From NCBI GenBank assembly GCA_963922205.1, contig CAWUHX010000113.1, forward strand, positions 558,001 to 622,000: 64,000 nt of DNA. Direction: 5' to 3'. The notes under the pieces are model-generated. The model searched no databases. It saw only the letters and a list, made by a program, of their open reading frames with translations, and had not been told where the DNA came from. Shown here piece after piece: positions 41,523-64,000 of this stretch; within the stretch, counting starts at the first letter, position 1, and each line of letters starts with the position of its first letter. The DNA comes from Romanomermis culicivorax. Taxonomy: Eukaryota > Nematoda > Enoplea > Mermithida > Mermithidae. Both the position numbers and the translations under genes were made by a program.

Positions 41523-41533
41523 GCCCCCCTTTA
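41523..41533 (-). other. Polypurine tract, copy 1
   Basis: On the minus strand the sequence CTAAAGGGGGGC abuts the LTR start TGTCTGG. This is the expected place and composition for the second-strand primer of an LTR element. The equivalent in copy 2 is 52,891-52,901. Confidence 0.6.
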
Positions 41534-43088: not shown

Positions 43089-46000
43089 TTACGGGTCGGG
43101 AACCTCTGCATCAAGATGGGGGTCAATCAGATTCGGTGTAAAGTCCCGGCTTATTGAAGGATACAATAAGGGTGCCGAATCTGTTGCCTGTGAAGTGGGA
43201 GGTGTATCCTCTGCTTCACTCGGTTGTTCAGGGGACACGTAAAGTCGAAGCTGGTTGACATGTACAGTGTCTTCCTGATCCATCTCGAGACGAAGTGTGA
43301 CATTGGGATATGCCACACTTGTGACAAGGTAGGGCCCATCGTAGATGGGCAGCAATTTAGGAGTGAGTCCACGTTTGTTGGAGGTGGGCAGTTTGAGCAC
43401 CTGATCCCCTACTTTGTATGAGACATCATGTGCCTTCCGGTCGTACGACCGTGCATAGGCTTCCTGTGCTTTCTCAATCCGACTCTGGATTAAGGTTAAC
43501 GCATTCGTGAAATGACGTTTGACCTCCATATCATACGAGGAAACATTAATGATATGGGCCGGAGGGTTGAATGAGAGCGCGGCATCAACAGGGAGCATGG
43601 GTGTGCGACCGTACATGAGTTCAAAGGGCGAGTACCCTGTTGACTCATTCATGCTGATATTGACGGCAAACACAGCGTATGGTAGGTGTTCATCCCAATC
43701 GGTATGTCCTTGATGAACATACATACGTAGCCGTGTGGCTAGCGTCTGATTAGCTCTTTCCACTTCGCCGTTGGTCATCGGATGATAGGCGGTAGAGTGG
43801 ATTTTCTTCGTTGCGCAGATCCCAGTGATCTCAGTCATCAGTTTTGATGTGAAATCAGTGCCACGATCTGACTGAAGAATCTGCGGTGCCCCGTGCCGGC
43901 AGACAATTTGCGTTACAAACAGCCGGGCTATGGTGTGCGCAGTGATGTCCGGAGTAGCAAAAGCTTCGACCCATTTCGTAAAGTAGTCGATAAAGACTAC
44001 GATGAAACGGTTGCCAGCTTCGCTAGTGGTCATTGGTCCCATGCAGTCAACACCTACCCGGTGAAACGGTCCCGTTATGGTGATAGGTTTCAGGGTCGCA
44101 GTGGTTTTCTGTCGAGCGGGCTTATTCCGTTGGCAAAGATCACACCGCTGACAGAAGGACTTGACATCCCGACTGAGGGAGGGCCAGTGGTATCTGCGAG
44201 CAATGAGCCGCGCAGTACGTTTAGCACCGAAGTGTCCAGCTAAGATGTCATCGTGATGAGCCCGGATAATGGTAGTAACCATGGATTTGGGTATGACGAT
44301 CTTATTGGACTCGCCTGTCCATTTCTGAAGAACGTTATCCAACAGATGGTAGCCTCGCACATCATTCTGGTCGCCCAGGGGCTTAAGAGAGCGAATGATG
44401 TCGGCTAACTCCGGATCCTCCAGCTGAGCAGCGAAAAGGTCGGGGTGCTGCGCACCGATGGATATCTGGGCATAAGACTCTGATCGTACCGGGCGCTCCG
44501 CGCCAACAGTGATCGGTGCTGAATTACTTGAACGCGCCAGGTGCTGCACACCATCGGTCAAGGTCCTGGATCGCGCCAGGTGCTGCGCACCATCGGTGAT
44601 CATCATAACGTGCCCCTCAGGTCTGTAGAGGGGAGTATCATCAATACTCTGACCGGTGAGGGAGTTAGGATCCGGCAGGCGTGATAATGCGTCAGCATTA
44701 CCATTAGACTGACCTTTTCGCGGCCGAATTGTCAGTTTGAATTCGGCGAGCGCGAGTCCCCACCGAGTGATCCGAGCAGAGGGGTTAGGCTTCTCCAACA
44801 CTGCTTTGACCGCGGTATGGTCAGTCTGAACAACCACCTCGTGCTGGAAGAGGTATGGTCGAAAGTGCTTGACGAAATGGACAACAGCGAGAGTCTCCAG
44901 TTCTGTAATGGAGTAGTTTTTCTCGGCCGCTGTTAACCCTCGGCTGGCGTACGCGACAGGATGGTCGTATCCATGTTCGTCTAACTGGCTAAGAACCGCT
45001 CCTATCCCCGAAATACTTGCATCAGTTTGAAGGATAAAGGATTCCGAAAAGTCCGGATGGCGCAGGATAGGAGGGTTGGTCAGCAGGCGGCGGAGTTCAT
45101 CGAATGCCTCCTGCTGAGGTTTTGACCACTGGAAAGTAGTTTCCTTCCGTAAGAGCTTGGTGAGTGGCTCGCTGAGCCGGGCACAACCAGGGATGAAACG
45201 CCTGTAGTAAGACACGAGGCCTAGGAAGGACTTGATGTCTTTGGCGTTTTGTGGAATGGGTAGGTTTTGGACGGCGGCCAGCTTGGCTTGGTCAGGTTCT
45301 AGGCCGCTCTGTGAGATGCGATAGCCTAGGTATTCTACCTCTGAGTGCGAGAACTTGCACTTGCTCAGTCTGAGCTTCATTCCACCCCGGCGAAGACGGG
45401 CGAACACATCTGCCAGGCGCTCAAGCATTTGGGTGTGAGAGTTCCCGAACACCAAAATGTCGTCGAGATAAGTCAGAACCGTGCGCCATTGGATTCCAGT
45501 AAGGAGGAGGTCCATAAGGCGTTGAAATGTCCCTGGCGCGTTGCATAAACCGAAAGGCAAATAATTGAATTCGTAAAGTCCAATAGGCGTATTAAAAGCC
45601 ATCTTTTCTTTATCCGCCTCGGCAATCGGGATTGACCAATAAGCGTTAGCCTGGTCAAGAGTAGTGAAATACTTCATACCCTTGAGTGTGTCGAGAATGT
45701 CATCTATCCGCGGGAGAGGGTAGACATTCTTTTTCGTGACCTCGTTAAGACCACGAAAGTCGACACACATACGGTGAGAACCGTTTTTCTTGCGCACCAG
45801 GACAGTATTAGTAGCCCACGGAGACGTGCTCGGCCGAATAATACCTTTCTCCTGGAGCGCCTTGACCTCTTGCATGATGAGATCCTTCTCCTTAGGTGAG
45901 GACCGGTAAGGGAAGCGGCGGACTGGGCGGGCATCGCCCGTGCTGATTTCGTGCTGGACGAGATCAGTGGAACCTGTGTCCTTTTCATCAAGAGCATAAA

Positions 46001-49000
46001 GGTCGGTGTATGCAACCAGCAGATCGAGTAAGGCTGCCCGGTCCCGAGGGGAGATGTCCGGTGAGATTACAGCATTGGCCTCGACCCACTGACGATCGAG
46101 GACGGTGTCTGAGTCGACCGGTGATTCCCGTGAGGGTTCACTATGCATCTGCACATGACCGATGGTCGTGTGCGGGTAGAGAACCACGGAATGAGTACTC
46201 GGGTTGACTACCTGAAGTGGTATGTGACCGTTGGTCACGGTACTCACGCTTCCAGCAAAATATACGTGTCTTTGAGATCCGGTGAGGTGCTTCGGAAAGA
46301 AGGCCACCTCAGGCACGTTCGTATAGATTGGTGGGACAGGGACAGTGAATCGTGTCAGGGAGCGAGGCTCTAGAATCACCAAGTCCTTCAGGGGCAAAGC
46401 GCCGCGGGCAGAAGGTGGGCTGTGGATGAGATTGTCACAGGGGATCCTACTTTCTTCGAACTGGAGGAAGGATTTCTCCCAGTTCAGACTGACACAATTG
46501 AACCGGCCGAGGAAGTTGGTTCCAAGGACCAGTTCAGCTGAACAGTTCTCCTGTATTTGGACCTGAATCCGTTCAGAGACATCAGCCACTGTAACTGTGA
46601 TGTAGGCTGCTCCTAGCAGTGGGATCGGGGACCCATTGGCTGCGATAGGGCGTGCCCTGGTTTGTGATAGTGACAAGTTGGGCAGCTGGGCCGCTAACTT
46701 GTGGTCCAGGAGTGAGAAAACGGCTCCTGTGTCGACCAGTGCCTTCGCTTCTACCCAGTTGTTGAGGAGAACTTTGATATGGGGTGTCCGAATATCATTT
46801 GGGTAAAAAGCCGTGACCACATGACCGGAATCAGGTGTGGTGGCACCACTAGCGTGTTTGGTCTTACCGGACCGCTTTGGAATCGGCAGTCCCGTACGAC
46901 GTAGAAGACCTACTAGAGCGTATCCGACAGAGGGTTCCGGGTCATTCAGAAGGGTGGACTCATCCTGCACCGTTAGTACGTGGTCTGAGTGATCCTTCGG
47001 ACTCTGAGTAGCTCCTAGTGATTCAACCTCGGTGTCGGATAGCGGAGGCGCGTTTGGCACGGGTGATGTCGGAGCATCTGAATCACTTGGCTCACGGTAT
47101 CGGCCCTTCTCTAGCGTAACTGGAGAGGTTCCAGGCGGAGGTCGAGGGCAACCTGACCCGTGCAAGGTCGACAGATGACGACTTGCCCGTCTAGAAGAGG
47201 CCCGGGATCCCCTAGTTGACCCACGTGATGAGGCAACTGAGGAGGCCCGTGAGTGTGGCCGAGAGATGGACGAAGCCCTGGACCGCGATCGTGATCCCGA
47301 CCTGTGTGAGTTTCGCGAGAGAGCACGTGTGTTCTCCCACCAGGGGTCGATCTGGTCAATCTCCGGCGTGGTCAGCAGGAGGGGTAATTCTACCGCGTCC
47401 AGCCGACAAACATTACGTTGGTAGTCAAACATAATGTTCTTGAACTGTTCTAAGAAGTCCAGTCCGAGTATGAGGTCAACAGGTGCCCAGAAGGGAGACG
47501 TAGTCTTGCACACATGGAGATGTACATCGATCCGTGTGTTCGGCTGGCGGTTTCCGGGCAACATGATTTCATATGGTCCCGAAAGGATGGTATGAACGGC
47601 TTTACCATTGATGCTCATCAATGGGTTAAAGTCGTGATGTTGCTGGAACGCCATGACCGCCTTCGGACTTTCTTTAGCCAAGGCCTTATGAAGACGTTGG
47701 CTAATGATAGTGCGTGGGCAACCCGTGTCAAGGAAAGCAGGAGTTTCCTTGGTGTCCAGCAGCACGACGAAGCACGGTGTGATTCGGTCAAGCTGGGAGG
47801 GCACATCGTTTTGCACGTAGTGAAAACCGATCCAGCGTTGGACTTTACGGTAAAGACCCAACGGGGAGAAACGGCTAACAAACCGGACCTGTTTGCTCCG
47901 CAGACGGTAGCTGAGATAATAAGATACACCAAGATAGGCAAGGTATCCGGCACCGATCAGCACTGTCAGGGTAATTAGGATGTTAAAGATCAACTGGACC
48001 GGCGTGCTCAGGACAGCATGCAAGCCCTGGGCGAGGGTGTGTTGTTGACCCGTAATAACATGGTTTGCTGCCAAACCGACACCTCCCAGAGAGGCCTTGA
48101 TGTCGGTTCCTACCCCTGCAAAGGCCTGGTAGATGGCATCTGGTTGCAGGGATAGACCAGCGGTAAAGTTTACCAGCCGGTTTAATACCGCTTCAATTTG
48201 CTCAGTCTTGTAAACGTACTGTTTAAAGAAGGCAAAGTTTGAAGGGGTCATCGCCAACTGGTCATGGAAGAGCGCCCGTGCCTCAAAGTGAGTGATGTTG
48301 AAACGCTGCTTCCAGAAGAGTTCCAGTGGGATGTGGCTCACATGGACCGCGCCAGACTCAGTAAACCAGCCCGAGCGATTTCGGAAAATCCCTGTAAAGT
48401 GGTGATGACACGGCACAATTGGGCTGGATTTAATGAGATCCGGACCACCGGGGGTGGCGAAGTAGATGGTGCCGCCAACCTGTACAGGTAAGTACTTGTA
48501 GCAAACGTTCCCCACCCGGTACGAGTGATAAACGTAGGTGGCGTTGACCTTCTGACACGGCCATATTGTCAGCGCGTCGCCTGTGAATTCCGCCGTCAGG
48601 TCATTCCTCTGGAGGAATGCCCGGGCACCCAGGGTAGGGTCGAAGCGAAGCAACTGCCAAGTCAGATCAAGATAGCGTTGAGCGTGAGAGCAGAGCTCAA
48701 GCCACGTGAACCGGAAACCGTTAATTTCCGACTCCTTGATCTGCTGAGCCAGATAGTTCAGTTTGGCATTGACAGGATCGGGACGGCTGTCTGTTGCCAC
48801 TCTGAACAAGTTTTGGGTCAAATTGTATCTCCCATGGATGCGATGGAGAAGACCCTGATCCGTCCGGACTGTGGTGGAACGTAGTTCTGGGCACAGTTGG
48901 AAGACACGGGAGTTTCCCGGGATCTTGAGGGCAACCTGTAGATCATCGATGATGACGTGGTTCCCTGACATGGACGCAGTGTAATTTCCCTTGGGGTGAT

Positions 49001-51641
49001 AATGACACCGCGCCGTGAAGTTTTGTGCAGGCCAGACAATGACCCCGTCTAGAGTAGTGCACTGGCCTGCAGTGGGACTGCATCCACCTACATCGCCTAA
49101 GGTGCTTAGGGCCGTAGTGCCGTCCCACGAAGCGACTTGTCCCTCCTCGATGAAGAGGTTAGTCACTGTCTTGCAGACGTTGCTGCAGCACCATTCGTAC
49201 ATCACTCCCAATGTTTGGTTTGTGCTATAAAAGCCAGGGCGAATGCCGACAAGTTTTTGTGAACCAAACATCTTAGTGCGATGTGCTAGCGTGCATGCCG
49301 CAGGCGCTAAGTGCTGAGTGGTCATGACGTCTGCAGTGATGCCCCTAGAGCCGAAGAAACCAGTGTTGGTGCAGACTTTGCGGGAGCGCAATGTGCATTT
49401 CCACGCTGTGGCTGTAATCGGGTCTGAGCTAGGGACATACACCGTAACATTCATGCGCTGCGGGCTCCATGAAGATTGCGGTGGTTTACACTCTACACGC
49501 TGGGGTAACTCAAGTGGATGTCCTCTTCTTGAGAGACCGCAAAATTGATACTGAGCCGCCGGTGCTGACAAACTCACCCCTAGAAACAGTGATGCTACCA
49601 AGGTCAATTTTATTGTCAAAAACAACATTACAAACGTAATTTGTAAGTGTTCACTGAATTTCACAAATCTGGCCTGAGGGGCAGTGTCAGATTTCTTCTT
49701 CGTCGCTGTCGGACGAGATTGATTCCTGACCGGGGAAATCGAGGACCAATCCACCGCACGGGTGGATTTCCCGGAGGATACCAATTTTTGGCGACCGTGG
49801 GGCGACTGCCGTTGGGAACGGGGATTCCTCAATGATGCTGACATCTTCGTTAACCGGACATAAGGTCTCGTCGACGGCCATGTGTTCGACGACGGGCGAC
49901 TTGGTCGCAGCGGTCGGAGATGTCGTTTGGGCTGGTGCCGGCGATTTGACCTGGGCTGTTGCCGACGATGTATGTTGGGCTGTTGCCGGCAATGTAGGAT
50001 CATTTGCAGGTTCCTTGGCCAGGGGCGAGGAAGCAGTAATGTCCATTTTCGTTGGCGATGTCGCGGCAACAGGTGGTGCTGCTGCCGGTGATGTAGCGGC
50101 GGCAGCAGGCAGGAGGATCCGACTGGCCTGTTCGACTGCTCGGCGGGCGGCATCGACTGAAGGCGAGGATGGCTCCCCGTCCAATAAGAACTTCTCGACG
50201 GGCGAGATGGTGATAGTCCCATTGGCAATGAACTCGAGTGCCCGTCGGGCGATGTCGGGTCGTAAGAGGCGCATTGAGACGGGTGCTGCAAGCACGACGT
50301 CGGCGGCCGTGAGCACTTCGACATTCGATGGCTCGTTGAGCAGAGTCCACGGCAAATGCGGGTATTTCTTGGCCAGGTCGACTGACCAGATGGCCAACAT
50401 CGCGTCTTGGACGGGCGATGGCGCTGTGAACAAGAAATCGATAGAGTCGTGGACTGAGATAGATTCCTGGTTCCTACTCTAGGATCACCTGAAGAAGAAG
50501 GTAGTATACCTGACAAATTCATGGGCTCGACCTGGTCGAGGACTTCCGTAGCCGAATCTGTGGAAATCGAAGGCGGTGGTCCTGGAGGGACGATGCGGGC
50601 CGGTGGCGCCGAAGATGTCGTATTCGCGGCTGGAGCTGGCTCGGCAGTCTTAATTTTAGGAATGCGATACGATGCGAGGATGTTAGCGTGGCCAACAAAC
50701 TGCGGTGTCGTCGAGGGGTCCAGAGTGACCGGCATCGCATACCTTGGTGGTGGTGGTGGCAGTGGTATGTCCGATACGTTTATTGGTACGGGTACCTGGG
50801 CTGCTTGGACCACTGAAAATCCAATACTGATTACGCAGACAGGATAACACTGTTGTGAAGAATCTGTCAGGTGTTCAGCAAGTGCCTCATCATCCAGGTC
50901 AAGAGGATCTGGATGAGGAGGGCCATTGGTAGCTCCAACGGCGTTGTTGCGGCGTATGGGCTGCCGATATTGGTTTCCTATCCCGTTGGGAGGGTGATAA
51001 CCATTTCTCTGATGATACACATTTGTCCCCTGGGAAGAATAACCAGTATCTTGGTAGACATTCTCACCCGTGTTTGCCGGATTGCGCTGCGGACAGGCAG
51101 TTGATCGGTGCACTCGCACTTGACGACAATGAGGGCATGGCCTATCACATGGGTCCGTGGGATGGGCACGTGTACGGCAAAAATAACAGCGACCACCGTT
51201 AGCGGCGTTGTTACCGGGAGCGGCACCGGTGGGACGCTGGGCCCGGCAGTCGGCGTCGCTATGTGTACACAGTCCGTGGAAGGAGCACGTTTGAAGGTGT
51301 GCTCCCGACGAGCGTCGCCCGGCGGACTGATTTGGTGTCAACGGCTGTGGAGGCGGTGTCTGTTGGATTGGCGTGGGTGCACGTTGCTGGGCCGTGAGCT
51401 TCGCTACGTGGGCCGTGAGCCTGGCCATTTCCTGTTTCAAGCGGCGAACCTCATCGGCGGAGGATGACGACGTTGGAGCGTTTGCTCTGACGACCGTTTG
51501 CGCTTCTGTTAGGCATTTCGGGATTATATCCGGCGTGTTTAGGTTCTGAAGAGAAAACGGCGTTAGATGGAGCAGTGTACCGGATCTCGTCCCGAAAGAT
51601 TTGGGATTCTGCGTAACAGGCTGCCTTGAGTGTCTCTTCAA
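43089..51641 (-). CDS. Gag(partial)-Env-Pol polyprotein frame, copy 1
   Basis: The 2,850-codon open frame carries everything from the Gag zinc knuckles to the end of integrase and, apart from its start, reads the same as residues 253-3046 of copy 2. Its first 55-60 residues are an artefact: an extra T near 51,471 joins a wrong frame, so the true reading begins at about [12 protein letters not shown]. The region upstream (51,480-52,230) still encodes the Gag N-terminus but is cut into three frames by single-base insertions and deletions. Because these differences crowd against the assembly gap, I suspect sequencing error rather than decay. Domains are described at the intact copy. Confidence 0.85.
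49687..50478 (-). CDS. Overlapping Gag C-terminal frame, copy 1
   Basis: This is the same reading as at 61,056-61,847 in copy 2, with no difference seen: open from just after a TAG to an acidic SSDSDEEEI terminus, overlapping the long frame in the -1 phase. It lacks an ATG at its beginning and would be reached by the 65-nt intron at 50,424-50,488. Confidence 0.55.
50424..50488 (-). other. Same candidate 65-nt intron in copy 1
   Basis: The same splice sites are present with identical spacing. Since the two copies are otherwise identical here, this is not independent evidence. Confidence 0.5.
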
Positions 51642-52526: not shown

Positions 52527-52626
52527 NNNNNNNNNNNNNNNNNNNNNNNNNNNNNNNNNNNNNNNNNNNNNNNNNNNNNNNNNNNNNNNNNNNNNNNNNN
52601 NNNNNNNNNNNNNNNNNNNNNNNNNN
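52527..52626. other. Assembly gap of exactly 100 N
   Basis: A round 100-N run normally marks a gap of unknown size. It replaces the outer leader of copy 1 and part of the LTR next to copy 2. If the two units share a single LTR, about 116 bases of leader and 156 bases of LTR would be missing here. Confidence 0.95.
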
Positions 52627-52890
52627 AGTGAGTAATAGGCTGTGACTCCTGATGGATACTGGCATTTTCCCCAGGCTTCCCCAAGTTGGCGTTGGGGCCT
52701 AACCTGGCAAATGATGGCTATAGAGAGGTCTATAGTTGGTTCTCTTGTGTTGTCCTTGGGGTCTTGCTGTAGGGTAACGGACAACGCTGCCAGGCTAGGT
52801 GCGACAATCCCCGAGTCCTACTCAGTGAGAGTGGGGACAGGGTCACCCGTGAAGTGACCTAAATTATGGGACCCGATTATGAACCAGACA
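52627..52890 (-). repeat. Partial 3' LTR of copy 2
   Basis: It corresponds to 41,260-41,522 of the inferred LTR with a single extra C (CTTCCCC for CTTCCC). The outer 156 bases are lost in the N gap. Confidence 0.7.
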
Positions 52891-52901
52891 GCCCCCCTTT
52901 A

Positions 52902-54457
52902 GCCCGAACCTGAGAGGTGGAGGCCCTACTTATCTGTGGAAACCTCGGGAAACCGACTTAGGAAGGATTTCCCAACAAATAACCCACAAATAACAATAAT
53001 CCCCTGAGAAGACTCACCTAGTCCTGTTTCTCAAGCGATTACGACGCAACGGGCGGCAAGTCCCTGGATGCTTTCGGTCTTCTGGCACTGGGAGCGGGGG
53101 ATGCAATCCTCAAACGTCCTAGGCGGCGAGCGGCGGCGAGCGGCGGCGAGCGGGAGGGAGCGGGAGCGAGCGGGAGGCGAAACTCCAACGTTTAATTCAC
53201 GAACCGGGGCGGTCGGACACCTGGCACTGATGGGCAGCGGGGGTACTGTAGGCGGTGAGCGGCGGACGCAGTAAGAAATGCAAGGGTATGCAAATTTATT
53301 TAAAATAATAGGCGGCAGATGCAGTCAAGTATATAAAAATATGCAAATTGAGCAGGGCGGCGGACGCGATGACAACCGGACGAAAGCTTGGTGAACCCAA
53401 GAATGAGCGAAACATGTCCTTTTAAGGACATGTTTGGCTACAGCTGCAGCTTGGGCGGAGTTTCTCGGCGCTCAAGCTAACTTCTGCAGCTAGACGCGAT
53501 GCAGAGGATGCCTATGAGCACATAGACATTTTTTCATTCACATGCGTTTAGCACTGAGGCCGGCTGCAGTGCCTATGCTAAGCATATGAACGTCTTTAGC
53601 TAAAACTTCTTAGCTAGTCGTTTTGCGTAACAAAAACGACGCTAATTTTTGATGATAAGAGGTGCGTGAGCGCACCAAAAATAGCCATGTGCTCGTGGAG
53701 CACGACTGGCGGAAGTTTTTAGCTAAAGGGCCTACTGTAGCCCGCGTTTGTAAAGAAATAAAAATACAACAAAACGAAACATAGAAATGCATGAAAAATA
53801 TAAAAACAAACGTAAAATGCATGTGTAAAAATGAAATAAACAAAAGCATGTTCGAGTAATAAATGAAACATGAAAAATAACAAAATGTCGGCATGATCAG
53901 GATCACGTGACGTTGGAGAATTGAGCGGCACGTGACACGGCGGTCCTTCGAAAAAGGGCGTCCTCGTCCTTGCAGTGGTCAGTAGTGAGGTTTTGTACGG
54001 CGTGTCCGTGGTCGTAGGTCATTCCAAGGTGTGACGGCAGAAGTGGTCGAATAGGTCCGTTGGGTTGTCGGCGGGTGGCGCCTTCTTTGATCGTAATTCG
54101 TTCGGCGGTATGGTGACCGGAGGTTGTTGATGTGTGGAGTTGCGGACATTGAATATCCTGTGCGACAGTCTAGAACACAGAAAAGAAAAAATTTTCAGGG
54201 CAAGATGTAGGCTATCGCAGAGGATGCGCCCCAGTGAGGTACAGATTGTCGGGCTATCGCAGAGGATGCACCCTGTGAGGTGTAGGCTATCACGTGAGGA
54301 TGCGCCTAAAGCGTGACGCTTAGGTTGCTGAACGCTCTCTTCTATCCGCTAAGATCCAGCATGGACAAGAGTGGATACTTCGTGAGGGGCACGGCGGTCC
54401 TTCGAAAAAGGACGTCCTCGTCCGTAAGCGGGGACAATGAAGAGAGTGCATCTTGAG
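52902..54457 (-). other. 3' non-coding region of copy 2
   Basis: It is the counterpart of 41,534-43,088 with the same minisatellite, palindrome (53,411-53,434) and repeated GGCTATCGCAGAGGATGC units. The only differences noticed are one extra G at about 53,240 and the LTR-side base. Confidence 0.65.
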
Positions 54458-57400
54458 TTACGGGTCGGGAACCTCTGCATCAAGATGGGGGTCAATCAGA
54501 TTCGGTGTAAAGTCCCGGCTTATTGAAGGATACAATAAGGGTGCCGAATCTGTTGCCTGTGAAGTGGGAGGTGTATCCTCTGCTTCACTCGGTTGTTCAG
54601 GGGACACGTAAAGTCGAAGCTGGTTGACATGTACAGTGTCTTCCTGATCCATCTCGAGACGAAGTGTGACATTGGGATATGCCACACTTGTGACAAGGTA
54701 GGGCCCATCGTAGATGGGCAGCAATTTAGGAGTGAGTCCACGTTTGTTGGAGGTGGGCAGTTTGAGCACCTGATCCCCTACTTTGTATGAGACATCATGT
54801 GCCTTCCGGTCGTACGACCGTGCATAGGCTTCCTGTGCTTTCTCAATCCGACTCTGGATTAAGGTTAACGCATTCGTGAAATGACGTTTGACCTCCATAT
54901 CATACGAGGAAACATTAATGATATGGGCCGGAGGGTTGAATGAGAGCGCGGCATCAACAGGGAGCATGGGTGTGCGACCGTACATGAGTTCAAAGGGCGA
55001 GTACCCTGTTGACTCATTCATGCTGATATTGACGGCAAACACAGCGTATGGTAGGTGTTCATCCCAATCGGTATGTCCTTGATGAACATACATACGTAGC
55101 CGTGTGGCTAGCGTCTGATTAGCTCTTTCCACTTCGCCGTTGGTCATCGGATGATAGGCGGTAGAGTGGATTTTCTTCGTTGCGCAGATCCCAGTGATCT
55201 CAGTCATCAGTTTTGATGTGAAATCAGTGCCACGATCTGACTGAAGAATCTGCGGTGCCCCGTGCCGGCAGACAATTTGCGTTACAAACAGCCGGGCTAT
55301 GGTGTGCGCAGTGATGTCCGGAGTAGCAAAAGCTTCGACCCATTTCGTAAAGTAGTCGATAAAGACTACGATGAAACGGTTGCCAGCTTCGCTAGTGGTC
55401 ATTGGTCCCATGCAGTCAACACCTACCCGGTGAAACGGTCCCGTTATGGTGATAGGTTTCAGGGTCGCAGTGGTTTTCTGTCGAGCGGGCTTATTCCGTT
55501 GGCAAAGATCACACCGCTGACAGAAGGACTTGACATCCCGACTGAGGGAGGGCCAGTGGTATCTGCGAGCAATGAGCCGCGCAGTACGTTTAGCACCGAA
55601 GTGTCCAGCTAAGATGTCATCGTGATGAGCCCGGATAATGGTAGTAACCATGGATTTGGGTATGACGATCTTATTGGACTCGCCTGTCCATTTCTGAAGA
55701 ACGTTATCCAACAGATGGTAGCCTCGCACATCATTCTGGTCGCCCAGGGGCTTAAGAGAGCGAATGATGTCGGCTAACTCCGGATCCTCCAGCTGAGCAG
55801 CGAAAAGGTCGGGGTGCTGCGCACCGATGGATATCTGGGCATAAGACTCTGATCGTACCGGGCGCTCCGCGCCAACAGTGATCGGTGCTGAATTACTTGA
55901 ACGCGCCAGGTGCTGCACACCATCGGTCAAGGTCCTGGATCGCGCCAGGTGCTGCGCACCATCGGTGATCATCATAACGTGCCCCTCAGGTCTGTAGAGG
56001 GGAGTATCATCAATACTCTGACCGGTGAGGGAGTTAGGATCCGGCAGGCGTGATAATGCGTCAGCATTACCATTAGACTGACCTTTTCGCGGCCGAATTG
56101 TCAGTTTGAATTCGGCGAGCGCGAGTCCCCACCGAGTGATCCGAGCAGAGGGGTTAGGCTTCTCCAACACTGCTTTGACCGCGGTATGGTCAGTCTGAAC
56201 AACCACCTCGTGCTGGAAGAGGTATGGTCGAAAGTGCTTGACGAAATGGACAACAGCGAGAGTCTCCAGTTCTGTAATGGAGTAGTTTTTCTCGGCCGCT
56301 GTTAACCCTCGGCTGGCGTACGCGACAGGATGGTCGTATCCATGTTCGTCTAACTGGCTAAGAACCGCTCCTATCCCCGAAATACTTGCATCAGTTTGAA
56401 GGATAAAGGATTCCGAAAAGTCCGGATGGCGCAGGATAGGAGGGTTGGTCAGCAGGCGGCGGAGTTCATCGAATGCCTCCTGCTGAGGTTTTGACCACTG
56501 GAAAGTAGTTTCCTTCCGTAAGAGCTTGGTGAGTGGCTCGCTGAGCCGGGCACAACCAGGGATGAAACGCCTGTAGTAAGACACGAGGCCTAGGAAGGAC
56601 TTGATGTCTTTGGCGTTTTGTGGAATGGGTAGGTTTTGGACGGCGGCCAGCTTGGCTTGGTCAGGTTCTAGGCCGCTCTGTGAGATGCGATAGCCTAGGT
56701 ATTCTACCTCTGAGTGCGAGAACTTGCACTTGCTCAGTCTGAGCTTCATTCCACCCCGGCGAAGACGGGCGAACACATCTGCCAGGCGCTCAAGCATTTG
56801 GGTGTGAGAGTTCCCGAACACCAAAATGTCGTCGAGATAAGTCAGAACCGTGCGCCATTGGATTCCAGTAAGGAGGAGGTCCATAAGGCGTTGAAATGTC
56901 CCTGGCGCGTTGCATAAACCGAAAGGCAAATAATTGAATTCGTAAAGTCCAATAGGCGTATTAAAAGCCATCTTTTCTTTATCCGCCTCGGCAATCGGGA
57001 TTGACCAATAAGCGTTAGCCTGGTCAAGAGTAGTGAAATACTTCATACCCTTGAGTGTGTCGAGAATGTCATCTATCCGCGGGAGAGGGTAGACATTCTT
57101 TTTCGTGACCTCGTTAAGACCACGAAAGTCGACACACATACGGTGAGAACCGTTTTTCTTGCGCACCAGGACAGTATTAGTAGCCCACGGAGACGTGCTC
57201 GGCCGAATAATACCTTTCTCCTGGAGCGCCTTGACCTCTTGCATGATGAGATCCTTCTCCTTAGGTGAGGACCGGTAAGGGAAGCGGCGGACTGGGCGGG
57301 CATCGCCCGTGCTGATTTCGTGCTGGACGAGATCAGTGGAACCTGTGTCCTTTTCATCAAGAGCATAAAGGTCGGTGTATGCAACCAGCAGATCGAGTAA

Positions 57401-57700
57401 GGCTGCCCGGTCCCGAGGGGAGATGTCCGGTGAGATTACAGCATTGGCCTCGACCCACTGACGATCGAGGACGGTGTCTGAGTCGACCGGTGATTCCCGT
57501 GAGGGTTCACTATGCATCTGCACATGACCGATGGTCGTGTGCGGGTAGAGAACCACGGAATGAGTACTCGGGTTGACTACCTGAAGTGGTATGTGACCGT
57601 TGGTCACGGTACTCACGCTTCCAGCAAAATATACGTGTCTTTGAGATCCGGTGAGGTGCTTCGGAAAGAAGGCCACCTCAGGCACGTTCGTATAGATTGG
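54458..57700 (-). CDS. Pol part: RT, RNase H and integrase, copy 2
   Basis: The reverse transcriptase begins near [12 protein letters not shown] and has the fingers motif [13 protein letters not shown], the first catalytic Asp in [10 protein letters not shown] and the YLDD box, followed by the thumb with [14 protein letters not shown]. The RNase H domain has [18 protein letters not shown] and QTDHTAVK, supplying the D-E-D set. The integrase has the zinc finger ending [26 protein letters not shown] and [10 protein letters not shown] (D-D-35-E), then [10 protein letters not shown], the GPY/F signature of Ty3/gypsy integrases. No chromodomain follows; the C-terminus is short and acidic. It functions in copying RNA to DNA and inserting it. 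All residues needed appear intact. Confidence 0.93.
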   Translation of the reverse strand, partial: PIYTNVPEVAFFPKHLTGSQRHVYFAGSVSTVTNGHIPLQVVNPSTHSVVLYPHTTIGHVQMHSEPSRESPVDSDTVLDRQWVEANAVISPDISPRDRAALLDLLVAYTDLYALDEKDTGSTDLVQHEISTGDARPVRRFPYRSSPKEKDLIMQEVKALQEKGIIRPSTSPWATNTVLVRKKNGSHRMCVDFRGLNEVTKKNVYPLPRIDDILDTLKGMKYFTTLDQANAYWSIPIAEADKEKMAFNTPIGLYEFNYLPFGLCNAPGTFQRLMDLLLTGIQWRTVLTYLDDILVFGNSHTQMLERLADVFARLRRGGMKLRLSKCKFSHSEVEYLGYRISQSGLEPDQAKLAAVQNLPIPQNAKDIKSFLGLVSYYRRFIPGCARLSEPLTKLLRKETTFQWSKPQQEAFDELRRLLTNPPILRHPDFSESFILQTDASISGIGAVLSQLDEHGYDHPVAYASRGLTAAEKNYSITELETLAVVHFVKHFRPYLFQHEVVVQTDHTAVKAVLEKPNPSARITRWGLALAEFKLTIRPRKGQSNGNADALSRLPDPNSLTGQSIDDTPLYRPEGHVMMITDGAQHLARSRTLTDGVQHLARSSNSAPITVGAERPVRSESYAQISIGAQHPDLFAAQLEDPELADIIRSLKPLGDQNDVRGYHLLDNVLQKWTGESNKIVIPKSMVTTIIRAHHDDILAGHFGAKRTARLIARRYHWPSLSRDVKSFCQRCDLCQRNKPARQKTTATLKPITITGPFHRVGVDCMGPMTTSEAGNRFIVVFIDYFTKWVEAFATPDITAHTIARLFVTQIVCRHGAPQILQSDRGTDFTSKLMTEITGICATKKIHSTAYHPMTNGEVERANQTLATRLRMYVHQGHTDWDEHLPYAVFAVNISMNESTGYSPFELMYGRTPMLPVDAALSFNPPAHIINVSSYDMEVKRHFTNALTLIQSRIEKAQEAYARSYDRKAHDVSYKVGDQVLKLPTSNKRGLTPKLLPIYDGPYLVTSVAYPNVTLRLEMDQEDTVHVNQLRLYVSPEQPSEAEDTPPTSQATDSAPLLYPSISRDFTPNLIDPHLDAEVPDP

Positions 57701-60700
57701 TGGGACAGGGACAGTGAATCGTGTCAGGGAGCGAGGCTCTAGAATCACCAAGTCCTTCAGGGGCAAAGCGCCGCGGGCAGAAGGTGGGCTGTGGATGAGA
57801 TTGTCACAGGGGATCCTACTTTCTTCGAACTGGAGGAAGGATTTCTCCCAGTTCAGACTGACACAATTGAACCGGCCGAGGAAGTTGGTTCCAAGGACCA
57901 GTTCAGCTGAACAGTTCTCCTGTATTTGGACCTGAATCCGTTCAGAGACATCAGCCACTGTAACTGTGATGTAGGCTGCTCCTAGCAGTGGGATCGGGGA
58001 CCCATTGGCTGCGATAGGGCGTGCCCTGGTTTGTGATAGTGACAAGTTGGGCAGCTGGGCCGCTAACTTGTGGTCCAGGAGTGAGAAAACGGCTCCTGTG
58101 TCGACCAGTGCCTTCGCTTCTACCCAGTTGTTGAGGAGAACTTTGATATGGGGTGTCCGAATATCATTTGGGTAAAAAGCCGTGACCACATGACCGGAAT
58201 CAGGTGTGGTGGCACCACTAGCGTGTTTGGTCTTACCGGACCGCTTTGGAATCGGCAGTCCCGTACGACGTAGAAGACCTACTAGAGCGTATCCGACAGA
58301 GGGTTCCGGGTCATTCAGAAGGGTGGACTCATCCTGCACCGTTAGTACGTGGTCTGAGTGATCCTTCGGACTCTGAGTAGCTCCTAGTGATTCAACCTCG
58401 GTGTCGGATAGCGGAGGCGCGTTTGGCACGGGTGATGTCGGAGCATCTGAATCACTTGGCTCACGGTATCGGCCCTTCTCTAGCGTAACTGGAGAGGTTC
58501 CAGGCGGAGGTCGAGGGCAACCTGACCCGTGCAAGGTCGACAGATGACGACTTGCCCGTCTAGAAGAGGCCCGGGATCCCCTAGTTGACCCACGTGATGA
58601 GGCAACTGAGGAGGCCCGTGAGTGTGGCCGAGAGATGGACGAAGCCCTGGACCGCGATCGTGATCCCGACCTGTGTGAGTTTCGCGAGAGAGCACGTGTG
58701 TTCTCCCACCAGGGGTCGATCTGGTCAATCTCCGGCGTGGTCAGCAGGAGGGGTAATTCTACCGCGTCCAGCCGACAAACATTACGTTGGTAGTCAAACA
58801 TAATGTTCTTGAACTGTTCTAAGAAGTCCAGTCCGAGTATGAGGTCAACAGGTGCCCAGAAGGGAGACGTAGTCTTGCACACATGGAGATGTACATCGAT
58901 CCGTGTGTTCGGCTGGCGGTTTCCGGGCAACATGATTTCATATGGTCCCGAAAGGATGGTATGAACGGCTTTACCATTGATGCTCATCAATGGGTTAAAG
59001 TCGTGATGTTGCTGGAACGCCATGACCGCCTTCGGACTTTCTTTAGCCAAGGCCTTATGAAGACGTTGGCTAATGATAGTGCGTGGGCAACCCGTGTCAA
59101 GGAAAGCAGGAGTTTCCTTGGTGTCCAGCAGCACGACGAAGCACGGTGTGATTCGGTCAAGCTGGGAGGGCACATCGTTTTGCACGTAGTGAAAACCGAT
59201 CCAGCGTTGGACTTTACGGTAAAGACCCAACGGGGAGAAACGGCTAACAAACCGGACCTGTTTGCTCCGCAGACGGTAGCTGAGATAATAAGATACACCA
59301 AGATAGGCAAGGTATCCGGCACCGATCAGCACTGTCAGGGTAATTAGGATGTTAAAGATCAACTGGACCGGCGTGCTCAGGACAGCATGCAAGCCCTGGG
59401 CGAGGGTGTGTTGTTGACCCGTAATAACATGGTTTGCTGCCAAACCGACACCTCCCAGAGAGGCCTTGATGTCGGTTCCTACCCCTGCAAAGGCCTGGTA
59501 GATGGCATCTGGTTGCAGGGATAGACCAGCGGTAAAGTTTACCAGCCGGTTTAATACCGCTTCAATTTGCTCAGTCTTGTAAACGTACTGTTTAAAGAAG
59601 GCAAAGTTTGAAGGGGTCATCGCCAACTGGTCATGGAAGAGCGCCCGTGCCTCAAAGTGAGTGATGTTGAAACGCTGCTTCCAGAAGAGTTCCAGTGGGA
59701 TGTGGCTCACATGGACCGCGCCAGACTCAGTAAACCAGCCCGAGCGATTTCGGAAAATCCCTGTAAAGTGGTGATGACACGGCACAATTGGGCTGGATTT
59801 AATGAGATCCGGACCACCGGGGGTGGCGAAGTAGATGGTGCCGCCAACCTGTACAGGTAAGTACTTGTAGCAAACGTTCCCCACCCGGTACGAGTGATAA
59901 ACGTAGGTGGCGTTGACCTTCTGACACGGCCATATTGTCAGCGCGTCGCCTGTGAATTCCGCCGTCAGGTCATTCCTCTGGAGGAATGCCCGGGCACCCA
60001 GGGTAGGGTCGAAGCGAAGCAACTGCCAAGTCAGATCAAGATAGCGTTGAGCGTGAGAGCAGAGCTCAAGCCACGTGAACCGGAAACCGTTAATTTCCGA
60101 CTCCTTGATCTGCTGAGCCAGATAGTTCAGTTTGGCATTGACAGGATCGGGACGGCTGTCTGTTGCCACTCTGAACAAGTTTTGGGTCAAATTGTATCTC
60201 CCATGGATGCGATGGAGAAGACCCTGATCCGTCCGGACTGTGGTGGAACGTAGTTCTGGGCACAGTTGGAAGACACGGGAGTTTCCCGGGATCTTGAGGG
60301 CAACCTGTAGATCATCGATGATGACGTGGTTCCCTGACATGGACGCAGTGTAATTTCCCTTGGGGTGATAATGACACCGCGCCGTGAAGTTTTGTGCAGG
60401 CCAGACAATGACCCCGTCTAGAGTAGTGCACTGGCCTGCAGTGGGACTGCATCCACCTACATCGCCTAAGGTGCTTAGGGCCGTAGTGCCGTCCCACGAA
60501 GCGACTTGTCCCTCCTCGATGAAGAGGTTAGTCACTGTCTTGCAGACGTTGCTGCAGCACCATTCGTACATCACTCCCAATGTTTGGTTTGTGCTATAAA
60601 AGCCAGGGCGAATGCCGACAAGTTTTTGTGAACCAAACATCTTAGTGCGATGTGCTAGCGTGCATGCCGCAGGCGCTAAGTGCTGAGTGGTCATGACGTC

Positions 60701-63598
60701 TGCAGTGATGCCCCTAGAGCCGAAGAAACCAGTGTTGGTGCAGACTTTGCGGGAGCGCAATGTGCATTTCCACGCTGTGGCTGTAATCGGGTCTGAGCTA
60801 GGGACATACACCGTAACATTCATGCGCTGCGGGCTCCATGAAGATTGCGGTGGTTTACACTCTACACGCTGGGGTAACTCAAGTGGATGTCCTCTTCTTG
60901 AGAGACCGCAAAATTGATACTGAGCCGCCGGTGCTGACAAACTCACCCCTAGAAACAGTGATGCTACCAAGGTCAATTTTATTGTCAAAAACAACATTAC
61001 AAACGTAATTTGTAAGTGTTCACTGAATTTCACAAATCTGGCCTGAGGGGCAGTGTCAGATTTCTTCTTCGTCGCTGTCGGACGAGATTGATTCCTGACC
61101 GGGGAAATCGAGGACCAATCCACCGCACGGGTGGATTTCCCGGAGGATACCAATTTTTGGCGACCGTGGGGCGACTGCCGTTGGGAACGGGGATTCCTCA
61201 ATGATGCTGACATCTTCGTTAACCGGACATAAGGTCTCGTCGACGGCCATGTGTTCGACGACGGGCGACTTGGTCGCAGCGGTCGGAGATGTCGTTTGGG
61301 CTGGTGCCGGCGATTTGACCTGGGCTGTTGCCGACGATGTATGTTGGGCTGTTGCCGGCAATGTAGGATCATTTGCAGGTTCCTTGGCCAGGGGCGAGGA
61401 AGCAGTAATGTCCATTTTCGTTGGCGATGTCGCGGCAACAGGTGGTGCTGCTGCCGGTGATGTAGCGGCGGCAGCAGGCAGGAGGATCCGACTGGCCTGT
61501 TCGACTGCTCGGCGGGCGGCATCGACTGAAGGCGAGGATGGCTCCCCGTCCAATAAGAACTTCTCGACGGGCGAGATGGTGATAGTCCCATTGGCAATGA
61601 ACTCGAGTGCCCGTCGGGCGATGTCGGGTCGTAAGAGGCGCATTGAGACGGGTGCTGCAAGCACGACGTCGGCGGCCGTGAGCACTTCGACATTCGATGG
61701 CTCGTTGAGCAGAGTCCACGGCAAATGCGGGTATTTCTTGGCCAGGTCGACTGACCAGATGGCCAACATCGCGTCTTGGACGGGCGATGGCGCTGTGAAC
61801 AAGAAATCGATAGAGTCGTGGACTGAGATAGATTCCTGGTTCCTACTCTAGGATCACCTGAAGAAGAAGGTAGTATACCTGACAAATTCATGGGCTCGAC
61901 CTGGTCGAGGACTTCCGTAGCCGAATCTGTGGAAATCGAAGGCGGTGGTCCTGGAGGGACGATGCGGGCCGGTGGCGCCGAAGATGTCGTATTCGCGGCT
62001 GGAGCTGGCTCGGCAGTCTTAATTTTAGGAATGCGATACGATGCGAGGATGTTAGCGTGGCCAACAAACTGCGGTGTCGTCGAGGGGTCCAGAGTGACCG
62101 GCATCGCATACCTTGGTGGTGGTGGTGGCAGTGGTATGTCCGATACGTTTATTGGTACGGGTACCTGGGCTGCTTGGACCACTGAAAATCCAATACTGAT
62201 TACGCAGACAGGATAACACTGTTGTGAAGAATCTGTCAGGTGTTCAGCAAGTGCCTCATCATCCAGGTCAAGAGGATCTGGATGAGGAGGGCCATTGGTA
62301 GCTCCAACGGCGTTGTTGCGGCGTATGGGCTGCCGATATTGGTTTCCTATCCCGTTGGGAGGGTGATAACCATTTCTCTGATGATACACATTTGTCCCCT
62401 GGGAAGAATAACCAGTATCTTGGTAGACATTCTCACCCGTGTTTGCCGGATTGCGCTGCGGACAGGCAGTTGATCGGTGCACTCGCACTTGACGACAATG
62501 AGGGCATGGCCTATCACATGGGTCCGTGGGATGGGCACGTGTACGGCAAAAATAACAGCGACCACCGTTAGCGGCGTTGTTACCGGGAGCGGCACCGGTG
62601 GGACGCTGGGCCCGGCAGTCGGCGTCGCTATGTGTACACAGTCCGTGGAAGGAGCACGTTTGAAGGTGTGCTCCCGACGAGCGTCGCCCGGCGGACTGAT
62701 TTGGTGTCAACGGCTGTGGAGGCGGTGTCTGTTGGATTGGCGTGGGTGCACGTTGCTGGGCCGTGAGCTTCGCTACGTGGGCCGTGAGCCTGGCCATTTC
62801 CTGTTTCAAGCGGCGAACCTCATCGGCGGAGGATGACGACGTTGGAGCGTTGCTCTGACGACCGTTTGCGCTTCTGTTAGGCATTTCGGGATTATATCCG
62901 GCGTGTTTAGGTTCTGAAGAGAAAACGGCGTTAGATGGAGCAGTGTACCGGATCTCGTCCCGAAAGATTTGGGATTCTGCGTAACAGGCTGCCTTGAGTG
63001 TCTCTTCAAGAGTCGTGAACTCCCTAAACTTGATACTATCTCGGAGGACCGGCTTCAGTCCCCGCAGAAAGATAGGTTTGATGATAGAATCTCGGACATC
63101 CGTCGCGAGGTCTGGATACGCTACCCTGGATAGTCTCTTGAGGTGCTCAAGGTAGACTATCGCGGACTCTGTCCGCTTCTGCAGTCGATCTTGGATCAGC
63201 TGCTGATGCAGATCAGAGTCGCGCCCTACCGGAAAATCTCTCCGTAGAAAAGCCGTAAACTCTTCGTAGCGGGTAGGTATTGGAGTGCTGCTGCTAAAGT
63301 CCCGGTAGGAGGCGAGAGCAGGACCCGTGAGGCATGACTCCAGAAAAGCGATTTTATACGCATGATCTGTCTCGCTTACACCCTGGAGTGTAAAGAAACG
63401 AGTAAGATGCGACATAAAATCGGTGATAGACTCACCAAAAGCACCGGAGAAGGTGGGAGGGGCCATAAAGCTGGACACGGGAGGGTGCCTCCGACCATTC
63501 ATGGCCTCTAACTTTTGGTTGAGGGGTCCAAGAGCATTCTCAAATGCAGCCTGGACTTTGTTCTCGATCTGTGAAGGGAGATCAGCTTCCGACTTCAT
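54458..63598 (-). CDS. Gag-Env-PR-PR-RT-RH-IN polyprotein frame (3,046 aa), copy 2
   Basis: One open frame from ATG at 63,598 contains, by residue: Gag (1-about 300, with [16 protein letters not shown] and [11 protein letters not shown]); a CHHC motif (315-328), a CX2CX4HX4C knuckle (348-361) and a CX2CX5HX4C knuckle (365-379); a Pro-rich segment; a basic Ser/Arg/Pro segment (about 590-860) that overlaps another frame; an envelope-like glycoprotein (868-about 1470); retropepsin-like PR1 (DTG 1501) and PR2 (DTG 1833); RT (D2192, YLDD 2254-2257); RNase H (TDAS, D2403); integrase with HHCC finger, D2728, D2788, E2824, and a GPY end. Env between gag and pol is not the usual arrangement. No stop or frameshift separates the genes, so it may be one polyprotein or be divided by splicing. 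Gene symbols are not assigned. Confidence 0.9.
57880..58320 (-). CDS. Second retropepsin-like domain (PR2)
   Basis: Residues about 1,815-1,915 read as an aspartic protease fold: [14 protein letters not shown] gives the active-site DTG (D1833), and [13 protein letters not shown] gives the hydrophobic-Gly motif expected before the C-terminal helix. It lies directly upstream of the RT in the normal pol position, so it is the likely element protease. Retropepsins work as dimers and mature the polyprotein. A beta-rich linker ([14 protein letters not shown] to HTTIGHV) connects it to RT. Confidence 0.82.
58400..58720 (-). CDS. Ser/Arg-rich linker between the two protease domains
   Basis: Between the DTG domains, about residues 1,620-1,730 contain [20 protein letters not shown] and [15 protein letters not shown]. 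This is a run of SR/RS dipeptides like those of splicing regulators or of basic nucleic-acid-binding spacers. It is followed by an acidic [13 protein letters not shown] segment. Its role is unknown. It may bind RNA or be a phosphorylated or cleaved spacer. Confidence 0.6.
58820..59190 (-). CDS. First retropepsin-like domain (PR1), fused to the envelope tail
   Basis: [20 protein letters not shown] carries a DTG at 1501-1503, and [11 protein letters not shown] provides the second signature about 100 residues later, so the spacing is that of a complete retropepsin-like fold. It follows the membrane anchor of the envelope region by about 60 residues. A second, independent DTG domain is not usual in gypsy elements. 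It could be a duplicated protease or a domain used for cleavage between envelope and Pol. Confidence 0.78.
59190..60997 (-). CDS. Envelope-like glycoprotein with signal peptide and membrane anchor, copy 2
   Basis: From an internal ATG at 60,997 (residue 868) a hydrophobic signal peptide ([17 protein letters not shown]) is followed by a Cys-rich ectodomain of about 520 residues. It has nine N-glycosylation sequons and paired cysteines such as [31 protein letters not shown] and CSPTAGQC. A single transmembrane stretch (about 1413-1440, [20 protein letters not shown]) is followed by a basic tail. The cysteine pattern around WKC..C..FFGS and the GVIVWP..C block recall class III-type glycoproteins of chuviruses and rhabdoviruses. 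This is a tentative family reading. Role: membrane attachment or fusion, if functional. The equivalent in copy 1 is 47,821-49,628. Confidence 0.75.
61023..61036 (-). promoter_or_regulatory. Possible splice acceptor just upstream of the envelope start
   Basis: On the minus strand TTTGTGAAATTCAG ends 25 nt before the envelope ATG. A leader-to-env splice from a GTGAGC donor near 63,687 (CCA|GTGAGCC) would make an mRNA starting at the signal peptide. This is a suggestion only. Confidence 0.35.
61056..61847 (-). CDS. Overlapping Gag C-terminal frame (about 264 codons), copy 2
   Basis: In the -1 phase relative to the long frame, this reading opens after a TAG at 61,848-61,850 and ends with TGA after an acidic tail ([11 protein letters not shown]). 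It has a folded-looking start ([35 protein letters not shown]), then an Ala/Pro/Thr/Ser-rich spacer. The composition is that of a real protein, whereas the overlapping long frame here is a monotonous S/R/P/H mixture. The first codon read as a start (61,802) is TTG, so it is probably entered by splicing or frameshifting from gag, not by its own initiation. Confidence 0.6.
61793..61857 (-). other. Candidate 65-nt intron joining gag to the overlapping frame, copy 2
   Basis: The donor CAG|GTGATC and acceptor TTTCTTGTTCACAG bound 65 nt. Removal joins the gag frame (codon phase 1) directly to the overlapping acidic frame and skips the TAG at 61,848. Donor and acceptor resemble those of SNW1 and katanin in this window (for example AG|GTGATG). 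A length of 65 nt is in the range of the short host introns. Confidence 0.55.
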
Positions 63599-63974: not shown

Positions 63975-63995
63975 TGGGGGAATCGATCCCGACCA
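63975..63995 (-). other. Possible tRNA primer-binding site
   Basis: On the minus strand TGGTCGGGATCGATTCCCCC begins with TGG, the complement of a tRNA CCA end, and lies three bases from a TG at 63,999-64,000 that would open the LTR (TGTCACAG). The tRNA is not identified. Confidence 0.45.
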
Positions 63996-64000
63996 AAATG

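What the first reader, a model, noticed from the sequence alone, without database searches (positions are those of the whole stretch)
54458..63598. Envelope gene sits between gag and pol in one uninterrupted frame
Seen: a single 3,046-codon frame has Gag zinc knuckles, then a signal peptide, Cys-rich ectodomain and membrane anchor, then two DTG protease domains, RT, RNase H and integrase. Known: in env-bearing gypsy/errantivirus, BEL/Pao and vertebrate retroviral elements the envelope lies after pol, usually made from spliced mRNA. Inference: the envelope was inserted upstream of pol, and expression control must differ from known elements. I know of no described retroelement with this order. 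It is the strongest candidate novelty here.
Basis: partly seen in the sequence, partly recalled or inferred. Interest (0 to 1): 0.92.

Follow-up and report, generated by a model that had tools for sequence, protein, structure and literature searches.

The report
Retroelements with envelope inside Gag-Pol
A genome, probably an animal's, carries several families of virus-like jumping genes whose presumed cell-entry protein is encoded in the middle of one giant gene, between the shell protein and the copying enzymes, rather than at the end as in retroviruses.

Summary
On the minus strand, 63598..54458 is one stop-free 3046-codon frame: Ty3-type Gag, zinc knuckles, signal peptide, envelope ectodomain, membrane anchor, two retropepsin-like domains (the first weak), RT, RNase H, integrase. 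It is no assembly join: of 150 scored genomic RT places at 98-100% identity, 74 lie in a stop-free frame of at least 3084 codons. Five further, diverged groups in the same genome and public proteins of unnamed hosts show the same order. The envelope matches PF24664, a fusion glycoprotein family of negative-strand RNA viruses. Two corrections: the window's second copy (43089-51641) is probably the same insertion assembled twice across a 100-N gap; and residues about 590-848 of the frame look more coding-like, and are better conserved between subfamilies, in the -1 frame, giving an overlapping ORF "X" that ends just before the envelope. Best reading: an old lineage of Ty3/gypsy-like LTR elements with Gag-Env-Pol order, probably made as one polyprotein that threads the membrane twice (mechanism inferred). 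A single-ORF Gag-Pol-Env element (Atlas) is published; in what I searched I saw none with Env in the middle.

The parts
54458..63598 (-). Gag-Env-Pol frame, 3046 aa from ATG
62984..63430 (-). Gag capsid (Ty3_capsid PF19259, residues 57-205)
   Evidence: E 6.2e-8
62462..62557 (-). Gag zinc-knuckle-like region (residues 348-379)
   Evidence: motif scan
61056..61847 (-). overlapping ORF X in the -1 frame (263 codons stop to stop; 237 aa from its first ATG at 61769); 58 nt lie between its stop and codon 868 at 60997
   Evidence: coding log-odds and subfamily conservation; codon-shuffle test
59189..60997 (-). Envelope region, residues 868-1470, with 9 NxS/T sites
60935..61015 (-). internal signal peptide, first hydrophobic run (862-888)
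59729..60142 (-). best-matching stretch of PF24664 Monjiviricetes_fusion (residues 1153-1290)
   Evidence: E 2.9e-14
59294..59386 (-). membrane anchor, second hydrophobic run (1405-1435)
58784..59176 (-). first retropepsin-like domain (DTG at 1501), directly behind the Env tail; weak
   Evidence: Pfam only E 0.081
57872..58141 (-). second retropepsin domain (PF13975, residues 1820-1909)
   Evidence: E 9.3e-8
56684..57166 (-). reverse transcriptase core (RVT_1, 2145-2305; YLDD at 2254)
56108..56422 (-). RNase H (PF17917, 2393-2497)
55148..55663 (-). integrase: H2C2 zinc domain and rve core (2646-2817)
52627..53937 (-). 3' LTR of the right-hand copy, its outer end missing at the gap
52527..52626 (.). 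assembly gap of N between the two near-identical stretches
43089..51641 (-). left-hand copy of the frame (2850 aa, without the capsid match), probably the same insertion assembled twice
41105..42568 (-). LTR at the left edge (TG..CA, 1464 bp); partner LTR lies outside the window at L009:3131-4606; AAAT flanks both outer edges

Best explanation
This is a young, highly multiplied family from an old lineage of Ty3/gypsy-like LTR retroelements that carries an envelope fusion glycoprotein of the negative-strand RNA virus (PF24664) kind between Gag and protease. SHOWN by sequence: the order and its spread over several families; LTRs with a 4-bp flank repeat; catalytic motifs; two hydrophobic segments only; no conserved Met at the envelope start; no stop after it. 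INFERRED: the full-length RNA is translated into one Gag-Env-Pol chain. Gag stays in the cytosol, the internal signal sequence starts translocation and is cut by signal peptidase, the envelope ectodomain goes into the ER lumen, the anchor stops transfer, and protease-RT-RNase H-integrase stay in the cytosol on the envelope tail, where the protease frees them. This is the topological logic of flavivirus and alphavirus structural polyproteins (recalled). In the window's family the gag-env linker also encodes an acidic protein X in the -1 frame, reached by a frameshift or by a spliced RNA (an acceptor-like site lies 23 nt before its first ATG), which would give a product that ends before the envelope.
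For: Order and domains. Copies and frames: 74 of 150 RT places in frames of at least 3084 codons; 63 of 73 env places 3480-3486 nt before a listed RT place. Six of 20 fetched loci hold all six domains in one 2472-codon frame. Selection on env in the L017 group: 71 of 119 differences at codon position 3 (two pooled comparisons). Two hydrophobic runs only. No conserved Met: 71 of 73 matches start at residue 2 or 3, two other copies read Q there, and the L015, L017 and L019 groups show none beside the signal. RT and Env trees share three groups. X: log-odds 0.001 in the -1 frame against -0.226 in frame 0; 5-8 against 13-16 amino-acid differences in 7 of 8 copies.
Against: No RNA or protein data. 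A 1:1:1 Gag:Env:Pol chain is unusual for a particle-forming element (recalled). The linker's frame 0 is poorly conserved in the window's family, so ribosomes may not normally read it; that it is free of stops is only moderately improbable by chance (64 of 3000 and 5 of 3000 shuffles). Acceptor-like sites before X leave a spliced scheme open. The eighth copy, L039, shows no preference for the -1 frame (5 against 5), the seven others are one subfamily and not independent, and plain position counts over the linker gave 17, 31, 20. Between L015 and L027 only 6 of 14 env differences fall at position 3. DCG stands for DTG in the protease of the L019 group and L011. P0089, in the same RT group, has Gag-Pol without env; P0006 has env in the middle but its RT falls outside.
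Confidence: 0.6

Rival explanations
1. Env is an optional exon: unspliced RNA gives Gag-Env-Pol (or Env-Pol), while splicing removes the env part to give Gag-Pol, so that the membrane form and the soluble form are made in a set ratio.
For: No stop on either side of env and one frame throughout, so an intron of a multiple of 3 would restore Gag-Pol; an env-less relative, P0089, reads Gag-Pol in one protein; acceptor-like sites exist. A plant element, Ogre, is titled 'partially spliced' in a reference seen.
Against: No donor-like site with 8 of 9 consensus matches in residues 540-1490, and no acceptor-like site in residues 1339-1490; gag before 540 and the stretch between the two protease domains were not scanned.
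Confidence: 0.15
2. Env-Pol is made from a spliced subgenomic RNA whose leader supplies the start codon, and Gag or Gag-X from the full-length RNA, as in errantiviruses but with Pol fused behind Env.
For: No conserved Met at env; acceptor-like sites at residues 550, 558, 581 and 603 (others at 692, 1003, 1280, 1338); X ends with a stop 58 nt before codon 868.
Against: The linker stays open in frame 0 across X, which this scheme does not need; in the L015, L017 and L019 loci frame 0 is the most coding-like frame of the linker.
Confidence: 0.2
3. Assembly or annotation artefact: an env-bearing fragment joined between gag and pol of another element.
For: A 100-N gap and a near-identical duplicate do lie in the window.
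Against: The gap is outside the ORF; the same spacing recurs at 63 of 73 env places and the same order occurs in other groups and in public proteins.
Confidence: 0.01

Closest known systems
Atlas virus, endogenous belpaovirus of the hookworm Ancylostoma ceylanicum (PMC9094657, passages seen)
   Same: LTR element with one stop-free polyprotein that includes Gag, Pol and an Env related to that of an RNA virus
   Different: Env is at the C-terminal end (Gag-Pol-Env), is phlebovirus-like class II, and the RT is Belpaoviridae
Anakin, BEL/Pao with chuvirus glycoprotein in mosquitoes (PMC7642597, abstract and passages seen)
   Same: glycoprotein of a chuvirus (Jingchuvirales) captured by an LTR element
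   Different: BEL/Pao; a figure legend lists the glycoprotein last, and I saw no passage that places it before Pol
LTR-Gypsy fragments with Jingchuvirales glycoproteins in insects (PMC10084718, abstract and passages seen)
   Same: Gypsy-type sequence near this type of glycoprotein
   Different: fragments; no gene order or intact frame in the passages seen
Errantivirus / gypsy of Drosophila (recalled; a passage of PMC12440569, says its env is likely from baculovirus)
   Same: Ty3/gypsy-type element with captured envelope
   Different: env after pol on a spliced RNA (recalled)
TelKA of bdelloid rotifers (PMC5408684, passages seen)
   Different: paramyxovirus F-type protein as ORF3; ORF3 is described as downstream of pol
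Flavivirus / alphavirus structural polyproteins (recalled)
   Same: capsid, internal signal, envelope and anchor in one chain cut by signal peptidase
   Different: positive-strand RNA viruses, unrelated; a likeness of working only

Membership tests
Ty3/gypsy (Metaviridae) LTR retroelements | Pol order PR-RT-RNase H-integrase with Ty3-type Gag capsid | tested here: met
   (Ty3_capsid, protease, RVT_1, RNase H, H2C2, rve in order)
Ty3/gypsy (Metaviridae) LTR retroelements | TG..CA LTRs, 4-6 bp target-site duplication, primer-binding site after the 5' LTR | tested here: met
   TG..CA, AAAT on both outer flanks (a weak sign in AT-rich flanks), TGG-starting site directly behind the 5' LTR; the tRNA was not identified and the polypurine tract is weak
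Ty3/gypsy (Metaviridae) LTR retroelements | RT nested among Ty3/gypsy RTs | tested here: inconclusive
   no named Ty3/gypsy reference clades were included
Errantivirus | env gene downstream of pol | tested here: not met
   env between gag and pol
Errantivirus | env expressed from a spliced RNA | not testable with these tools
   no RNA data
Anakin / Belpaoviridae | BEL/Pao-type Gag-Pol | tested here: not met
   Ty3_capsid and gypsy-type Pol families; no family that I know as BEL/Pao-specific at E up to 1
Monjiviricetes / Jingchuvirales fusion glycoproteins | PF24664 over the curated cut-off | tested here: met
   52 bits against cut-off 27; BDV_G only below its cut-off
Class III fusogens | class III fold | not testable with these tools
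Retroviridae | gag-pol-env order | tested here: not met

The most novel reading that the evidence does not exclude
An ancient lineage of LTR retroviruses in invertebrates builds its particle from one membrane-threading Gag-Env-Pol polyprotein, so that Env tethers both the shell and the enzymes, with an overlapping -1-frame protein X that yields a Gag-side product without Env or Pol. That would be a form of retroviral genome organisation and assembly outside the gag-pol-env plan.
Probability: 0.4. Interest if true: 0.88.

Novelty: new variant of a known kind. Interest (0 to 1): 0.78.

Why it matters
The gag-pol-env order is treated as the plan of retroviruses and of env-bearing retrotransposons. 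A successful lineage with Env in the middle shows that this order is not forced, suggests a second route by which retrotransposons became virus-like, and poses a testable question: how Gag, Env and Pol from one chain reach a particle. It also matters for annotation, since a search for env only after pol would miss such elements.

Tried and rejected
Rejected: assembly artefact as the source of the order; a Gag or Pol domain in residues 868-1470; the left copy as independent evidence (probably the same insertion). Not shown: a canonical -1 slippery heptamer (none in residues 400-860); homologues of X in the 20 loci or the retrieved proteins (none at E up to 1); Pfam or PHROGs hits for X.

Led nowhere: IMG/VR scan with the envelope, no relative (records near the window's genome may be left out there); the envelope against PDB sequences, best E 0.069, to an agglutinin receptor; the envelope alone against the protein database, one unnamed 536-aa relative among 8000 scored candidates; host identity beyond 'probably animal', because the cytochrome oxidase search did not complete; LTR copy number, because that search did not complete. 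Papers: nine searches answered, seen as listings and starts of abstracts; passages of 11 papers were seen. In these I saw no retroelement with env between gag and pol; 'gag-env-pol' occurred in none of the papers held. Subscription papers and Repbase are not covered, and supplements were not read.

Full report
WHAT IS THERE. The window lies in a 359-Mb, 595-contig genome (C113:558001-622000). A tubulin exon gives best PDB matches to alpha-tubulins over its full length (the organisms are not listed there, that the best chains are animal is recalled), so I take the host as probably an animal; the species is unknown. From about 41 kb on the window is G+C-rich (about 0.5 against about 0.34) and holds two long minus-strand ORFs, 43089-51641 and 54458-63598. 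Pfam on overlapping pieces gives Ty3_capsid (second ORF only), PF24664, retropepsin, RT, RNase H, integrase in that order.

ONE INSERTION, PROBABLY ASSEMBLED TWICE. 41260-52526 and 52627-63882 are 99.85% identical and meet at a run of 100 N. The outermost LTR edges, 41105 and L009:4606 outside the window, are both flanked by AAAT, as one insertion would be; in AT-rich flanks a 4-bp repeat is weak evidence. The simplest reading is a single element of about 16 kb whose overlapping contigs were not merged. Its LTRs of 1464 and 1476 bp differ at 6 of 1464 aligned positions plus 12 gap positions. A TGG-starting primer-binding-like site abuts the 5' LTR. About 3.5 kb lie between that LTR and the gag ATG; the longest ORF wholly within L009:1-3130 is 112 aa. 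The window's two ORFs are thus not two independent witnesses.

THE ORDER IS REAL. The window's RT piece scored 150 of 7341 candidates in the genome; the 150 matches are 98-100% identical, on 113 contigs, and 74 of 150 lie in a stop-free frame of at least 3084 codons. The envelope piece scored 73 of 4202; 63 of 73 have a listed RT place 3480-3486 nt downstream on the same strand, 10 have none listed. Both lists are capped and hold the window's insertion twice. A PF24664 search scored 68 of 2320, and rang in 0 of 14 control genomes. Of the 20, 14 show GAG, ENV, PR, RT, the RT/RNase H piece and INT all in order; 5 (L011, L012, L016, L018, L025) show fewer, with the same-strand ones in order; one (L029) is rearranged. 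Six of 20 (L019-L023, L028) hold all six in one frame of 2472 codons from the first Met. By nucleotide identity the 20 form five groups, and none matched the window's 54001-64000 by blastn. Their main envelope matches are 34-46% identical to the window's; the window's first protease piece found no match in them at E 1e-5.

BEYOND THIS GENOME. In a database of 5.8 billion proteins the envelope, searched with a long context, found five proteins among 6425 candidates. P0004 (2973 aa), P0006 (2535) and P0008 (2490) hold a Gag, PF24664, protease, RT, RNase H and integrase in this order in one protein; the Gag match is below Pfam's cut-off in P0004 and P0006, the protease match in P0006 and P0008. 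By blastp with window pieces P0004, P0008 and P0123 (2499 aa, found) show GAG-ENV-PR-RT-INT, P0005 and P0095 ENV-PR-RT, P0007 GAG-ENV. The sources are given as JGI, ENA and 'lgn'; no host is named.

TREES. RT tree, 45 rows, quick method without bootstrap: 17 of 18 env-bearing rows fall in one group (SH-aLRT 94, not starred) with two rows without env. P0089 has Gag and Pol in one protein without env and without a hydrophobic run, so a likely loss; P0085 starts 84 residues before the protease match and says nothing about env. P0006 lies outside, weakly placed on a long branch, so a second capture or an exchange is open; the tree needs four changes of the trait, and starred branches force at least two. 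I gave it 12 of the 20 loci and 34 public proteins of my choice, mostly from the 120 listed; L025 and P0097 dropped out for short matches. The envelope tree (20 rows: window, 11 of 20 loci, 8 proteins) shows the same three groups: L018 (with L025) with P0123 and P0008; window with P0004 and L015/L027; the L019 and L017 groups with L011. P0095 and P0005 are placed less firmly. Env and Pol have therefore mostly travelled together.

ENVELOPE AND TOPOLOGY. The only hydrophobic runs in the 3046 residues are 862-888 and 1405-1435. Residues 840-1500 hold 9 NxS/T sites and no RxKR/RxRR site. In the window, the L011, L015, L017 and L019 groups, P0004 and P0005 a D[TSC]G protease motif follows the anchor within roughly 65-120 residues; in L018/L025, P0006 and P0008 none shows in the 120 residues printed. 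A LLELA-like motif recurs in several of these tails, not in the window's. The Met at 868 is particular to the window: 71 of 73 matches start at residue 2 or 3, L034 and L039 read Q there, and the L015, L017 and L019 groups have no Met beside the signal, while L018 and P0004 do have one nearby. Class III is suggested by weak Glycoprotein_B hits, but no fold was predicted.

THE LINKER AND ORF X. Between Gag and Env the window's family behaves oddly. Frame 0 is open but scores as non-coding (-0.226 per codon), while the -1 frame scores 0.001 and is open for 263 codons (61056-61847), with 58 nt from its stop to codon 868. Against 8 other copies over residues 592-755, 7 show 13-16 amino-acid differences in frame 0 and 5-8 in the -1 frame (11-15 in the third frame); these seven are one subfamily. 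The eighth, L039, shows 5 and 5. Position counts over residues 570-850 were 17, 31, 20, no clear signal. Keeping the -1-frame protein and shuffling its synonymous codons leaves frame 0 stop-free in 64 of 3000 trials; redrawing from RT-INT codon usage, in 5 of 3000; keeping the frame-0 protein leaves the -1 frame stop-free in 7 of 3000. So both frames may be in use, with moderate evidence for frame 0. X has no Pfam or PHROGs match and no relative in the 20 loci. In L015, L017 and L019 frame 0 is the most coding-like frame of the linker. In four comparisons within the L017 and L019 groups 46-69% of linker differences fall at its third positions; L015 against L027 has only 5 linker differences, 1 of them at position 3. 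No canonical slippery site was found. Acceptor-like sites lie at residues 550, 558, 581, 603, 692, 1003, 1280 and 1338, the fourth 23 nt before X's first ATG; no strong donor-like site was found in residues 540-1490. How X is reached is open.

MECHANISM. I hold most likely a single Gag-Env-Pol chain sorted by membrane topology, the protease acting from the cytosolic tail of Env, with X as a family-specific extra product. The chain itself is inferred; what is shown is that no stop separates the three parts in the window's ORF, in the other long frames among the 74 of 150 scored places, and in the six L019-type loci.

COMPARISON. [quoted passage not shown] Anakin joins a chuvirus glycoprotein to BEL/Pao (PMC7642597, passages). 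Gypsy fragments near such glycoproteins are reported in insects (PMC10084718, passages). TelKA has a paramyxovirus-type F as ORF3 (PMC5408684, passages). Troyka encodes no envelope (PMC12440569, abstract and passages). [quoted passage not shown] The passages with 'between gag and pol' or 'upstream of pol' that I opened in PMC5408687, PMC7175516, PMC2577118, PMC6317226 and PMC10714607 do not concern an env in that place. Nine answered paper searches listed no retroelement with env between gag and pol that I could see; most of the listed papers were seen as listing only, and subscription papers and Repbase were not covered.

VERDICT. A real and repeated arrangement, old enough to have split into groups with Env 34-46% identical to the window's and young enough to have about 150 scored near-identical RT places; a new variant of env-bearing Ty3/gypsy-like elements with an untested mode of expression.

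Noticed in passing
window 52527-52626: 100-N gap between two 99.85% identical 11.3-kb stretches: a likely false duplication in the assembly.
   Followed up: yes
window 61056-61847 (-): Overlapping 263-codon ORF in the -1 frame of the gag-env linker, acidic C-terminus, better conserved than frame 0 between subfamilies.
   Followed up: partly
G000 C180 (404, 8769, 17134) and C25 (197813, 206184): PF24664 places at even spacing of about 8365-8371 bp: tandem copies of a shorter element or further assembly duplicates.
   Followed up: no
L011, L014, L019-L023, L026, L028: Protease motif reads DCG instead of DTG or DSG, also in copies with intact frames.
   Followed up: no
P0004 residues 1352-1879: Three retropepsin-like domains in a row, the middle one without a D[TSC]G motif.
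   Followed up: partly
P0006: Env in the middle although its RT falls outside the main env-bearing group: second capture or exchange.
   Followed up: partly
window 20001-22000: Strong strand asymmetry (AT skew 0.59, GC skew 0.29) with A-rich repeats of about 121 bp.
   Followed up: no
window 37877-38677 (-): ORF of 266 aa with a partial, sub-cut-off RT match: perhaps a remnant of another retroelement.
   Followed up: no
L009:1-3130: Most of a leader of about 3.5 kb between 5' LTR and gag start, without a long ORF.
   Followed up: partly
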